A stretch of 32,365 bases of DNA from Solirubrobacteraceae bacterium (GTDB taxonomy: Bacteria; Actinomycetota; Thermoleophilia; Solirubrobacterales; Solirubrobacteraceae): positions 1 through 32,365 of the forward strand of contig JAURVW010001349.1 in assembly GCA_030655275.1 (NCBI GenBank). The letters run 5' to 3'. The position numbers were made by a program, and so were the translations under genes. Of this stretch, positions 8,833 to 13,253 are shown piece by piece. Within the stretch, counting starts at the first letter, position 1, and every line of letters begins with the position of its first letter. Below the pieces are notes generated by a model. It did no database searches. It was not told the origin of the DNA and saw nothing but the letters and a program-made list of their open reading frames with translations.

Positions 8833-8877
8833 GTGGGCTGGATTGACCGCGCTATTCGCCGTCAACGGAGCCCACGA
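8833..8877. repeat. 45-bp palindromic direct repeat, copy 1
   Basis: GTGGGCTGGATTGACCGCGCTATTCGCCGTCAACGGAGCCCACGA; differs at one position from copy 2; contains inverted arms GTGGGCT/AGCCCAC and TTGAC/GTCAA. Confidence 0.85.
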
Positions 8878-8904
8878 GGGTCCGGGCGAGTCGCGCGGTT
8901 TGTC

Positions 8905-8949
8905 GTGGGCTGGATTGACCGCGGTATTCGCCGTCAACGGAGCCCACGA
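8905..8949. repeat. 45-bp palindromic direct repeat, copy 2
   Basis: GTGGGCTGGATTGACCGCGGTATTCGCCGTCAACGGAGCCCACGA; starts exactly 72 bp after copy 1. Confidence 0.85.
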
Positions 8950-9034
8950 CACCGGGGACGATCCGTGCCGGTCGGCGTGGGCGTCGTAAGCGTCGACAGT
9001 CTTGCGTCGCCGCCGTGCGCCGCCTGTCGCCCAC

Positions 9035-9640
9035 CTAGAAGTCCTCGGCGAAGGCCGTGAGTCGCGCGTAGAGCTTCTCCTTCGCGGCCGGCCATTCCTC
9101 GGGGGTCATCGAGTACATCATCGAGTCGCGCAGGTCGCCGTTGCGGCGCACCGCGTGCCGACGGATCCGGCCGTCGAACTGCGCGCCGAGCGCCTCGATC
9201 GCGGCCTGGGAAGCGTAGTTCTCGCCGTCGGTGCGCCATCCGACCACCGAGGCGCCGAGCGTCTCGAAGGCATGCTCGAGCAGCATGAGCTTGCAGACGG
9301 GGTTCACGTGCGTGCGGTGGAATCGCTTTGCGTAGAACGTGTAGCCGATCTCCACGCGACGGGCCGGCAGGATGATGTCGTGGTAGCTCGTGCTGCCGAT
9401 CACGTCGCCGGAGGGCTCGTCGATCACCGCGAACGCGACCCGCGAGCCGGCGTTGCGCATGTCGATCGCCAGCTGGATGTACTCGGCGGCGGATTCCTCG
9501 TCGGGCACCCAGGTGACCTTCAGCTTCGAGAGGCCGTCGGCGCTGCCGGCCGCCGCCAGGCCCGCCTCGTGCTCGAGTGAGAGGGGGACGAGGGCGACCC
9601 CGCCGCGCCGGAGGGTGACGGACGGGACGACGAACGACAT
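9035..9640 (-). CDS. GNAT family N-acetyltransferase (RimJ/RimL-like)
   Basis: VALVPLSLEHEAGLAAAG...AFAVIDEPSGDVIGSTSYHDIILPARRVEIGYTFYAKRFHRTHVNPVCKLMLLEHAFETLGASVVGWRTDGENYASQAAIEALGAQFDGRIRRHAVRRNGDLRDSMMYSMTPEEWP. Confidence 0.9.
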   Translation of the reverse strand: MSFVVPSVTLRRGGVALVPLSLEHEAGLAAAGSADGLSKLKVTWVPDEESAAEYIQLAIDMRNAGSRVAFAVIDEPSGDVIGSTSYHDIILPARRVEIGYTFYAKRFHRTHVNPVCKLMLLEHAFETLGASVVGWRTDGENYASQAAIEALGAQFDGRIRRHAVRRNGDLRDSMMYSMTPEEWPAAKEKLYARLTAFAEDF

Positions 9641-9856: not shown

Positions 9857-11071
9857 TCAGCGCACGCGCAGCTTCGACGCCGCTTCGCGGGCGACGAGAC
9901 GGGCGGCGTCGGCGTCGGTGCCCGTGGCGAGCGCCACACCCATGCGGCGGCCTGGTCGCGCGTCGGGCTTGCCGAAGACCCGCACGTCGACGGTCGGATC
10001 GACGGCCATCGCCTCGGCGACGCCTTCGACGAGCGGCTCCGAACTCACCTCGGTGGCGAGCAGGACGGCGCTGGCGCCCGGGGCGATCTGCGGCACGAAC
10101 CCGTCTTCGTCGCTCGGGATCGGGAGCCCGAGGATCGCGCGCACGTGGAGGGCGAACTCCGAGAGGCGCTGGGTGGCAAGGGTGACCATGCCCGTGTCGT
10201 GCGGGCGCGGGGAGACCTCGCTGAAGAGCACCTCATCGCCGCGGATGAAGAGCTCGACCCCGAAGAGCCCGGTGCCGCCGAGCGCCTCGGTGACGGCGGC
10301 GGCGACGCGCTTGCTCTCGGCGAGCGCGGCCTCGCTCATGGGGTGCGGCTGCCAGCTCTCGCGGTAGTCACCGTCCTCCTGGACGTGCCCGATCGGCTTG
10401 CAGTAGACCGTGCCGCCCGCGTGGCGCACGGTGAGGAGCGTGATCTCGTAGTCGAACTCGACGAAACCCTCGACGATCACGCGGCCGAGCCCGACGCGCC
10501 CGCCCTCCTGCGCGTACTGCCACGACGCTTCGGCGTCGGCCGGCGTGCGGACGACGCTCTGGCCCTTGCCCGACGACGACATCACCGGCTTCACCACGCA
10601 CGGCGTGCCGACGGAGGCGACGGCCTCCTCCAGCTCCTCGAGCGAGTCGCAGAACCGGTAGGGCGAAGTCGGAAGGCCGAGCTCCTCGGCCGCGAGGCGA
10701 CGGATGCCTTCGCGGTCCATCGAGAGGCGAGCGGCGAGAGCGGTCGGGACGACGTGCAGGCCGTCGGCTTCGAGCTCCTGCAGCACGGGCGTCGCGATCG
10801 CCTCGAGTTCGGGGACGACCAGCATCCGAGCGCAGGGCCGGTCGCGCTCGTTGGTGAGGACGGTGCGCAGCTCGGACGCCTCGCTCATGGAGCAGACGAT
10901 GCTGCGGTGCGCGATCTGCATCGCGGGCGCACCCTCGTAGCGGTCGATCGCCACGACCTCGCAACCGAGGCGCATCGCCTCGATGGCCACTTCCCGGCCG
11001 AGTTCGCCGCTCCCGAGGAGGACGAGACGCGTGGCCTGGTCGGTGAGCGGAGGACCGAAGGGGGTGGGCAC
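9857..11071 (-). CDS. purT: Formate-dependent phosphoribosylglycinamide formyltransferase (GAR transformylase 2); start uncertain (ORF opens at 11128)
   Basis: ATP-grasp protein: [112 protein letters not shown]. Confidence 0.95.
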
Positions 11072-11249
11072 GACTGGCAAGATACCGGCCAGCAAACGGG
11101 CCCCGGTGTGCGTTTGGCCGCCCTGCAAGTCGCACTTCTTACGGGGTGATCGGAGTTGTGAACAAACTCGACAGGCAGGTTTGACCTCGTCGTACGGTCA
11201 ACGAAGAACGGCACCTCGCCGCTCCCCCGGAAAGCATCACGCACACCAC

Positions 11250-11522
11250 ATGACCGGTCCCACCCGACCCTCTCGTCCACTCTCCATCAATGCGATCCTG
11301 GCCATCGCGGCGCTCTGCGCGACGGCCTCGGTCCTGGCCGTCCCGAAGGCGACCATCGCTCCGATCCCGGAAGCGATCGCCGAGACCAGCGACGCTCCCG
11401 CGGCGGCCGCCGACCAGGATCAGATCCAGCGCGACCTGACCGCCAACCTCAAGGCCATCGGCCTGGAGGCGACGATCGTGTTCAGCGTCGTCGACGCCGT
11501 GGCCAACGCAGCCACGAGCTAG
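11250..11522 (+). CDS. Small putative secreted/membrane-anchored protein (90 aa), unknown function
   Basis: MTGPTRPSRPLSINAILAIAALCATASVLAVPKATIAPIPEAIAETSDAPAAAADQDQIQRDLTANLKAIGLEATIVFSVVDAVANAATS*; N-terminal hydrophobic segment, divergent from purT. No family recognised. Confidence 0.55.
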   Translation: MTGPTRPSRPLSINAILAIAALCATASVLAVPKATIAPIPEAIAETSDAPAAAADQDQIQRDLTANLKAIGLEATIVFSVVDAVANAATS

Positions 11523-11534
11523 GAACTGCCAAAC

Positions 11535-11554
11535 GAACGATCTCTAGATCGTTC
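11535..11554. repeat. 20-bp palindrome
   Basis: GAACGATCT-CT-AGATCGTTC, perfect 9-bp arms, 13 bp after the stop of the small ORF. Confidence 0.85.
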
Positions 11555-11660
11555 CTGAGGAGGCCATCTCGGATGAGATTCGGGCTGGGCGCGACATGCT
11601 CAGGCCTCTGGCCGTGGGTGTCGTGTCCAGCCCGAAGATCCGCCGAGAGGGCTCCTCCGG
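11554..11660. repeat. Large (about 107 nt) imperfect hairpin in the convergent intergenic region before the purH stop
   Basis: Left arm CCTGAGGAGGCCATCTCGGATGAGATTCGGGCTGGGCGCGACATGCTCAGGCC; reverse complement of the right arm CCGGAGGAGCCCTCTCGGCGGATCTTCGGGCTGGACACGACACCCACGGCC; loop TCT. Confidence 0.8.
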
Positions 11661-11666
11661 GGCGAT

Positions 11667-13253
11667 CTAGTGGCGGAAGTGGCGCAAGTCGGTGAAGACC
11701 ATGGCCACGCCGCGGCGGTTGGCGGCTTCGACGACTTCGTCGTCGCGCTTGGAGCCGCCGGGCTGGATGATCGCCTTGACGCCGGAGTCGATGGCGAGCT
11801 CGGGGCCGTCGGCGAACGGGAAGAACGCGTCGGAGGCGAGCACGGCGCCGTCGAGGGAGTCGACGCGCGACTTGTCGAGGGCGATGCGGACGGAGTCGAC
11901 GCGGCTCATCTGGCCGGCGCCGATGCCGATCGTGGCGCGGTCCTTCGTGATGACGATGGCGTTCGACTTCACGTGGCGCACGACGCGCCAGGCGAAGAGG
12001 AGTTCTTCCCACTCGGCTTCGGTGGGGTGGCGGTCGGAGGCGACCTCGAACTGCGAACGGTCGTCCGGGTCGGTGTCGCGGTCCTGCATGAGCATGCCGC
12101 CGCCGAGGTCGCGGGTCTCGGGGTCGATGCCGCGGCGGAAGCGACGCTCGCGGTCTTCCAGGACGCGCAGGTTGGGCTTCGCGGAGAAGACCTCGAGGGC
12201 CTCGTCGGTGAAGGACGGGGCGACGATCACCTCGACGAAGTTCTCGGCGATCTTCTTGGCGAGGGTGCCGTCGATCTCGCGGTTGAGGGCGATGATGCCG
12301 CCGAAAGCGCTGAGCGGATCGGACCGCAGGGCGCGCTCGTACGCCTCCTGCGGGCTCTCGGCGAGGGCGGCGCCGCACGGGTTGTTGTGCTTGACGATCG
12401 CGCAGGCGGAGTCGCTGAGCTCGGCGACGAGCCGGCGGGCCGAGTCGAGGTCGAGGAGGTTGTTGTACGAGAGCTGCTTGCCCTGGTGCTGCTGCACCAT
12501 CGAGAGGGCGTGCGTGCGGGTGCCGACCTGCGTGTAATACGCGGCCCGCTGGTGCGGGTTCTCGCCGTACGGCAGCTCCATCGTCTTCTCGAAGGCGCGC
12601 ACGTAGAGGTCGGGGAACTGGGCCCCGGCGCGCTCGGAGAACCAGCGGGCGATCGACGAGTCGTAGCGCGCGGTGGTGTGGAAGGCCTCGCCGGCGAGGG
12701 CGCGGCGGGTCTCGGCGGTGAGCTCACCGTCGGAGGCCTCGAGTTCGGCGATGACGCCGTCGTAGGACTCCGGCGATACGACCACGGCGGCGTACGCGTG
12801 GTTCTTCGCAGCGGCGCGGATCATCGACGGGCCGCCGATGTCGATCTGCTCGATGACGGCCGACTCGTCGAGGTCGAGGCGCGCGGCGGTCTGCTCGAAC
12901 GGGTAGAGGTTCACGCAGACGAGGTCGATCCACTCGATGCCGTGCTCGGCGGCGGCGGCGGCGTGCTCGGGATTGTCGCGAACGCCGAGGAGGCCGCCGA
13001 AGATCTTCGGGTGGAGCGTCTTGAGGCGCCCGTCCATCATCTCCGGGAAGCCGGTGACGTCGTCGACCGGGCGGACCTTGACCCCCGCCTTCTCCAGCGT
13101 GGTGAGCGTGCCACCGGTCGAGACGATCTCGACGCCGAGGGCTTCGAGACCCTTGGCGAAGTCGACGATCCCTCGCTTGTCGAAGACCGAGATCAGGGCG
13201 CGCCGGACGCGGACGGCCTCGGGCGGCGTGGGGGCTGATGCTTCGGTGCTCAC
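11667..13253 (-). CDS. purH: Bifunctional AICAR transformylase/IMP cyclohydrolase
   Basis: RRALISVFDKRGIVDFAKGLEALGVEIVSTGGT, VTGFPEMMDGRLKTLHPKIFGGLL, LPYGENPHQRAAYY, LSYNNLLDLDSA, AIVKHNNPCGAA, IQPGGSKRDDEVVEAANRRGVAMVFTDLRHFRH. Confidence 0.98.
   Translation of the reverse strand: MSTEASAPTPPEAVRVRRALISVFDKRGIVDFAKGLEALGVEIVSTGGTLTTLEKAGVKVRPVDDVTGFPEMMDGRLKTLHPKIFGGLLGVRDNPEHAAAAAEHGIEWIDLVCVNLYPFEQTAARLDLDESAVIEQIDIGGPSMIRAAAKNHAYAAVVVSPESYDGVIAELEASDGELTAETRRALAGEAFHTTARYDSSIARWFSERAGAQFPDLYVRAFEKTMELPYGENPHQRAAYYTQVGTRTHALSMVQQHQGKQLSYNNLLDLDSARRLVAELSDSACAIVKHNNPCGAALAESPQEAYERALRSDPLSAFGGIIALNREIDGTLAKKIAENFVEVIVAPSFTDEALEVFSAKPNLRVLEDRERRFRRGIDPETRDLGGGMLMQDRDTDPDDRSQFEVASDRHPTEAEWEELLFAWRVVRHVKSNAIVITKDRATIGIGAGQMSRVDSVRIALDKSRVDSLDGAVLASDAFFPFADGPELAIDSGVKAIIQPGGSKRDDEVVEAANRRGVAMVFTDLRHFRH

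What the first reader, a model, noticed from the sequence alone, without database searches (positions are those of the whole stretch)
11535..11660. About 107-nt near-continuous hairpin abutting a perfect 20-bp palindrome in a convergent intergenic region
Between the stop of the 90-aa ORF (11522) and the purH stop (11667-11669), nearly every base belongs to an inverted repeat. A perfect palindrome (GAACGATCT-CT-AGATCGTTC) runs directly into two roughly 51-53-nt complementary arms with a 3-nt loop (TCT). Long matched blocks are CTCGG, TTCGGGCTGG and CGACA. This is far longer than a rho-independent terminator and has no T-tract. Candidates: a structured non-coding RNA or 3'-UTR of the small secreted-protein gene, a bidirectional terminator, a MITE-like element, or an RNase III-processed dsRNA. 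Function is inference; the symmetry is directly visible.
Basis: partly seen in the sequence, partly recalled or inferred. Interest (0 to 1): 0.68.

Follow-up and report, generated by a model that had tools for sequence, protein, structure and literature searches.

The report
Repeated palindromic hairpin at gene ends
The hairpin after the purH gene is one of about 70 diverged copies of a 103-base palindromic element, found in one genus of actinobacteria, that sits at the stop codons of ordinary genes and often carries inverted and direct copies of the gene's last bases, as a mobile element inserted by an unknown mechanism would.

Summary
In detail: 11556-11658 folds far better than shuffled sequence, more strongly on the + strand (z -8.5) than on the - strand (-5.2). 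It is not a one-off. A covariance model finds about 70 copies in all four held species of the genus (Solirubrobacteraceae, Patulibacter-like) and essentially none in other genera of the order (232 genomes) or in a 397-genome phylum sample. The stem covaries massively (33 of 40 pairs changed on both sides; 0/500 shuffles) around constant motifs. No Rfam family matches.

Copies are polar. The hairpin begins at a gene's stop codon (within 15 nt in 47 of 72), before the intrinsic terminator where one is seen, yet the folded strand (51 G-U versus 0 A-C cells) is antisense to that gene. Here the gene is purH, not the 90-aa ORF. Many loci read: gene end - hairpin - inverted gene end - gene end again; a relative's empty site fits two such insertions in tandem.

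Best reading: a new genus-specific family of non-autonomous mobile palindromic elements, some kept as 3'-UTR hairpins. Mobility and fold-back copying are inferred; no mobilising enzyme was found (RAYT and reverse transcriptase absent).

The parts
11556..11658 (+). Core palindromic element (103 nt hairpin), folded strand = + strand
   Evidence: Fold z -8.5; covariance-model match 112.9 bits to R1 (built with it) and 77.7 bits to R2
11575..11585 (+). Conserved 5' side of the basal motif GAGATTCGGGC, whose GA faces GA of the 3' side (tandem G-A mismatch)
   Evidence: GAGATTCG nearly invariant in A-type copies
11630..11640 (+). Conserved 3' side of the basal motif GCCCGAAGATC
   Evidence: CGAAGATC nearly invariant in A-type copies
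11603..11613 (+). Hairpin tip GGCC-TCT-GGCC, next to a conserved unpaired A
   Evidence: AG..C..G..C of the tip is nearly invariant across copies; coordinates
11544..11555 (+). Outer foot CTAGATCGTTCC, inverted copy of the purH end; pairs with 11659-11670
   Evidence: Inverted-copy test p 0.015 for this locus; coordinates
11659..11670 (+). Opposite outer foot GGGGCGATCTAG, holding the purH stop codon (reverse complement)
   Evidence: Sequence
11535..11554 (.). 20-bp palindrome; read here as inverted plus second direct copy of the gene end. The direct copy is not significant at this locus (p 0.185)
11667..13253 (-). purH, the host gene: its stop codon lies 8 nt before the core
   Evidence: Pfam AICARFT_IMPCHas and MGS; gap
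11253..11522 (+). 90-aa convergent ORF, possibly coding (GC by codon position 0.66/0.56/0.88), no Pfam match; not the gene to which the element is anchored

Best explanation
It is one copy of a genus-specific, non-autonomous mobile palindromic element about 103 nt long. The active form would be the single strand antisense to the host gene (window + strand), folded into a hairpin with conserved tandem G-A mismatches and a conserved bulged tip, recognised by an unidentified enzyme supplied in trans. It inserts at the 3' end of a gene, at or within about 15 nt of the stop codon, usually after a C and often supplying the stop itself as C^TGA. Insertion duplicates about 12-18 nt of the gene end, and the hairpin's free end folds back and copies the gene end in reverse, giving: gene end - hairpin - inverted gene end - gene end - original terminator. 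Once in place it can be transcribed on the gene's strand as a stable 3'-UTR hairpin, and some copies are kept long term (groEL, nrdJ). Shown: a multicopy genus-limited family, structure constrained on one strand, fixed orientation at gene ends, inverted and direct gene-end copies at a subset of loci, an empty site. Inferred: transposition itself, a single-stranded intermediate, fold-back copying, an enzyme in trans, any effect on mRNA.
For: About 70 copies in four species of one genus, none convincing elsewhere. Covariation: 33/40 and 27/40 pairs with changes on both sides, 0/500 shuffles. Strand: G-U 51 versus A-C 0 cells, and 36 versus 11; + strand more stable in 69/70 copies. Position and polarity at stop codons. 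Inverted gene-end copy significant at p<=0.05 in 24/65 loci, direct copy in 12/65, about 3 expected each. Empty site: the thiolase of G002 has gene end, 30 nt, terminator; G003 has gene end, hairpin 1, E'E, hairpin 2, E'E, TGA, 28 nt, a similar terminator. purH of G003 has no hairpin.
Against: No mobilising enzyme found: Y1 transposase/RAYT and reverse transcriptase are absent from all four genomes. No copy is shown to have moved recently: no two strains of one species were compared. 41 of 65 loci show no significant inverted copy and 53 no direct copy, so the duplication is seen only at a subset. Part of the inverted extension and covariation could come from replication template switching (PMC8794818). 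Old copies retained at orthologous genes suggest function, not only mobility.
Confidence: 0.6

Rival explanations
1. A 3'-UTR hairpin of the host mRNA (purH strand), selected for mRNA 3'-end protection or processing, spread by recombination and kept by selection; mobility is past or incidental.
For: Sits between stop codon and terminator; groEL copies in three species look inherited and their stems changed in step; the complement strand still folds strongly.
Against: The strand that would be in the mRNA is the less stable one and carries A-C where the other carries G-U; conserved tandem G-A and U-G sites make sense on the antisense strand only. It does not explain direct repeats of the gene end.
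Confidence: 0.2
2. A structured antisense or stand-alone RNA transcribed from the + strand at each locus.
For: Strand bias of G-U pairs and motif conservation typical of structured RNAs.
Against: Left flanks share no common sequence and differ between copies, so no shared promoter is visible (not tested by promoter scan); host genes and left neighbours differ; no Rfam match.
Confidence: 0.08
3. A long terminator or quasi-palindrome formed and kept perfect by replication template switching, without mobility.
For: Location after stop codons; long GC-rich stem; template switching can create and repair such stems (PMC8794818).
Against: No T-tract; separate classical terminators follow in 15/64 loci, against 2/64 shuffled and 2/64 on the other strand; a copy lies between two co-directional genes (L083). 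Arm correction would erase the conserved G-A mismatches and U-G runs. Motifs shared between unrelated loci are not explained.
Confidence: 0.08

Closest known systems
REP / BIME elements (GTAG- and CGTC-tagged repetitive extragenic palindromes), PMC3733652
   Same: Multicopy, lineage-specific palindromes directly after genes, often between convergent genes, whose end can supply a stop codon
   Different: 103 nt instead of 20-40; GTAG tag in 4 and CGTC in 12 of 68 copies near the feet, so no consistent tag; no RAYT in the genus; copies of the host gene end beside the element
Rickettsia palindromic elements (RPE-1 to RPE-8)
   Same: Dispersed palindromic hairpins of roughly 100 nt, lineage-specific, mechanism of spread unknown (partly from general knowledge; RPE-1, -4, -6 mentioned in PMC3733652)
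   Different: RPEs are known for insertion inside reading frames; these sit at stop codons with one orientation. RPE sequences were not compared
MITEs (miniature inverted-repeat transposable elements)
   Same: Short non-coding inverted-repeat element, multicopy, target duplication at a subset of sites
   Different: Duplication is longer (about 12-18 nt) and comes with an inverted copy; no parent transposon found; sequence of the stem is free to vary (general knowledge for MITE features)
Integron attC sites
   Same: Imperfect palindrome after a gene's stop codon, antisense ('bottom') strand is the folded form, structure kept while sequence varies (general knowledge; PMC3053210 title/abstract)
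   Different: No RYYYAAC/GTTRRRY core boxes in any of 68 copies; scattered single copies at housekeeping genes, not cassette arrays
IS200/IS605 hairpin ends
   Same: One strand's imperfect hairpin, with mismatches, would be the recognised form
   Different: Y1 transposase absent from the genus; gene-end duplications are not expected for that mechanism (general knowledge)

Membership tests
REP elements (GTAG or CGTC superfamily) | 20-40 bp palindrome with a GTAG or CGTC tag at one end | tested here: not met
   103 nt; tag near a foot in 4 (GTAG) and 12 (CGTC) of 68 copies
REP elements (GTAG or CGTC superfamily) | RAYT transposase in the genome (GTAG type) | tested here: not met
   PF01797 absent from G000-G003; control genomes positive. 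MAGs are 85-93% complete
REP elements (GTAG or CGTC superfamily) | Location close to 3' ends of genes | tested here: met
   47 of 72 within 15 nt of a stop codon
Integron attC site | R boxes RYYYAAC and GTTRRRY at the two feet | tested here: not met
   0 of 68
Integron attC site | Antisense strand is the folded, structured strand | tested here: met
   together
MITE | Terminal inverted repeats and target-site duplication | tested here: inconclusive
   Whole element is an inverted repeat; direct repeats of the gene end significant in 12 of 65 loci; one empty site
MITE | Shares ends with an autonomous transposon | not tested
   Only Y1 transposase and reverse transcriptase families were searched
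Rickettsia palindromic elements | Sequence similarity to an RPE family | not tested
   RPE sequences were not compared
Known structured RNA (Rfam 15) | Score above a family's gathering threshold | tested here: not met
   No match in the window or in eight copies; relaxed search gave only weak chance-level matches
Rho-independent terminator | GC-rich hairpin followed by a T-tract | tested here: not met
   No T-tract at either foot in the window; separate terminators downstream in 15/64 loci

The most novel reading that the evidence does not exclude
A new kind of bacterial mobile element: a strand-polar hairpin that inserts at stop codons and, by target-primed or fold-back synthesis, writes an inverted and a direct copy of the gene end beside itself; moved as single-stranded DNA or as RNA by an enzyme not yet known.
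Probability: 0.28. Interest if true: 0.85.

Novelty: new variant of a known kind. Interest (0 to 1): 0.6.

Why it matters
It adds an apparently undescribed repeat family in a poorly studied actinobacterial lineage, with a strand-specific folded element placed almost to the base at stop codons of housekeeping genes. If the layout gene end - hairpin - inverted end - end reflects the insertion reaction, it points to an unknown transposition chemistry. Because some copies are kept and still covary, it also offers natural tests of what hairpins directly after stop codons do to mRNA, and of how far template switching mimics selection on structure.

Tried and rejected
Rfam at gathering and relaxed thresholds: nothing credible. 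RAYT/IS200 transposase as mobiliser: absent from the genus. Reverse transcriptase (SINE-like target-primed insertion): PF00078 absent from the genus. attC: core boxes absent. Phage or plasmid origin: no match to a B-type copy in phages or plasmids, none to exact B-type patterns in IMG/VR. L005 (G014) from the first blastn was a 24-base match inside a coding frame and was dropped. Strand-biased cytosine deamination as the cause of the G-U excess: on general knowledge it should act mainly on the non-transcribed (gene-sense) strand and give A-C, the opposite of what is seen; argued, not tested. Literature: no paper in the library held the genus Solirubrobacter together with REP.

Full report
Observation. 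The sequence is as described. GAACGATCT-CT-AGATCGTTC lies at 11535-11554 and the long hairpin at 11556-11658, with GGCC-TCT-GGCC at its tip. On the + strand 11523-11666 folds to -91.6 kcal/mol (shuffles -56.9 +/- 4.1, z -8.5), on the - strand to -74.1 (z -5.2); no shuffle did as well in either case. The stem continues into the purH end (11544-11555 with 11659-11670).

A family, not a singleton. blastn found a second copy in the same genome and copies in two other species of the genus. A covariance model from four of these found more, and a second model from 35 copies gave, after removing both-strand duplicates, about 22, 6, 27 and 16 copies in the four held species of the genus. In the rest of the family there was one weak hit among 142 genomes, in the order none outside the genus in 232 genomes, and in a 397-genome phylum sample one weak hit. 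An exact B-type pattern in a named collection hit only MAGs called Solirubrobacteraceae bacterium and Patulibacter sp.. There was no match in IMG/VR, phages or plasmids and none in Rfam.

Structure and strand. Copies fall into two overlapping groups: A (the window copy; GAGATTCG ... CGAAGATC near the base) and B (CGCCGCAGAT ... GATGCAAGCGAGA, tip GGTTTAGGCC..GGCCGGGCC). Constant parts are tandem G-A mismatches and the tip; between them lies a stem of roughly constant length but free sequence. In A, 97.4% of cells pair, 33 of 40 pairs have changes on both sides, 0 of 500 shuffles reach any measure, and slid structures give 12-14 such pairs; in B 95.0%, 27 of 40, 0 of 500. At pairs that are Watson-Crick by consensus, the window + strand shows 51 G-U and 0 A-C cells in A, 36 and 11 in B, and it folds better than its complement in 69 of 70 copies with RNA and with DNA energies. 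The folded molecule is therefore most likely the + strand sense, as RNA or single-stranded DNA. Caveat: the copies are related, so 69 of 70 is not 70 independent observations.

Position. Read on the other strand, the element begins at the stop codon of a gene: within 15 nt in 47 of 72 copies, within 200 nt in 60, against 8 of 72 with a gene ending within 15 nt of the far foot. The base before the foot is C in 59 of 68 and the foot starts TGA in 39 of 68, so the element often supplies the stop. In the window the gene is purH, whose TAG lies 8 nt before the core. Other hosts look like groEL (three species), nrdJ (three species), enolase, glpX, thiolase and rplL; these names were read from the protein sequences and not run through Pfam. 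Classical terminators follow downstream on the gene's strand in 15 of 64 loci, against 2 on the opposite strand and 2 in shuffles. In L083 the hairpin lies between a YbaB-like gene and a co-directional recR-like gene. The folded strand is thus antisense to the host gene, which argues that the host mRNA is not the molecule that shaped the structure.

Gene-end copies. On the gene's strand many loci read E - hairpin - E' - E, E being the last 12-18 nt of the gene or of gene plus stop, E' its reverse complement. Against flanks of other loci as null, the inverted copy is significant at p <= 0.05 in 24 of 65 loci, the direct copy in 12, both in 8. In the window the inverted copy is significant (p 0.015) and the direct copy is not (p 0.185). 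The clearest case is a thiolase. In G002 the gene end ATCGAGCGCATC-TAG is followed by 30 nt and a terminator; in G003 (93% identical protein) it is followed by hairpin 1, E'E, hairpin 2, E'E, TGA, 28 nt and a similar terminator. Two dissimilar hairpins with the same E'E additions are hard to explain other than by two insertions, or by one unit duplicated and its hairpin later replaced. The nrdJ-like gene of G000 also holds two hairpins in tandem.

Age. groEL hairpins of three species share bases (GATTTCGG ... CCGAAAGC) not seen at other loci, so they look inherited, and their stems have changed in step. nrdJ is similar, and the G001 copy combines one foot from each of the two G000 copies. Some copies are therefore old and kept, while species-specific tip types point to newer spread.

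How it works. The best account is a non-autonomous mobile hairpin with a preference for gene ends and fold-back copying of the target. The steps from the folded strand to the inserted state are inferred. The two enzymes tested, the RAYT/IS200 type and reverse transcriptases, are missing from all four genomes, within the limits of 85-93% complete MAGs. Template switching (PMC8794818, abstract read) can generate inverted copies and keep arms matched and may contribute; it does not explain the shared core, the persistent G-A mismatches or the direct repeats.

Known kinds. It resembles REP elements in location and in supplying stop codons (PMC3733652), but differs in length, tag and transposase. 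In outline it works like an attC site (antisense strand folded, directly after a gene), but lacks the core boxes in 68 of 68 copies. I file it as a new variant of the known kind 'bacterial palindromic repeat / MITE-like element'. No mobilising enzyme, transcript or activity has been shown.

Noticed in passing
L011, L014, L024, L028, L035, L036 (species G002), just upstream of the hairpin on the gene strand: Many G002 copies carry an extra repeated stretch, ggttcgcctggcggctcacggtcttggtgagc, between the gene's stop codon and the hairpin, sometimes in tandem, so the spreading unit in that species is larger.
   Followed up: partly
L088 1501-1858 (G001:C190): Two adjacent copies with an enlarged tip: about 60 extra bases inside the hairpin, the second interrupted by a run of N.
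   Followed up: no
L085 1501-1603 (G003:C58): The one clear copy in reversed orientation: a gene on the folded strand ends at the foot and no gene ends at the usual foot.
   Followed up: no
L021 and L017/L029 (nrdJ-like gene, G001 and G000): The single G001 hairpin has one foot like hairpin 1 and the other like hairpin 2 of the G000 tandem pair, as if recombined within an array.
   Followed up: partly
window 8833-9060: A tandem-like repeat visible in translation on both strands (GWIDRAIRRQRSPR... twice; GSVDGE... twice) in an intergenic stretch.
   Followed up: no
window 9857-11128 (-): A PurT-like gene (Pfam ATP-grasp and PurT_C) lies downstream of purH on the same strand, past the hairpin and the convergent 90-aa ORF.
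   Followed up: no
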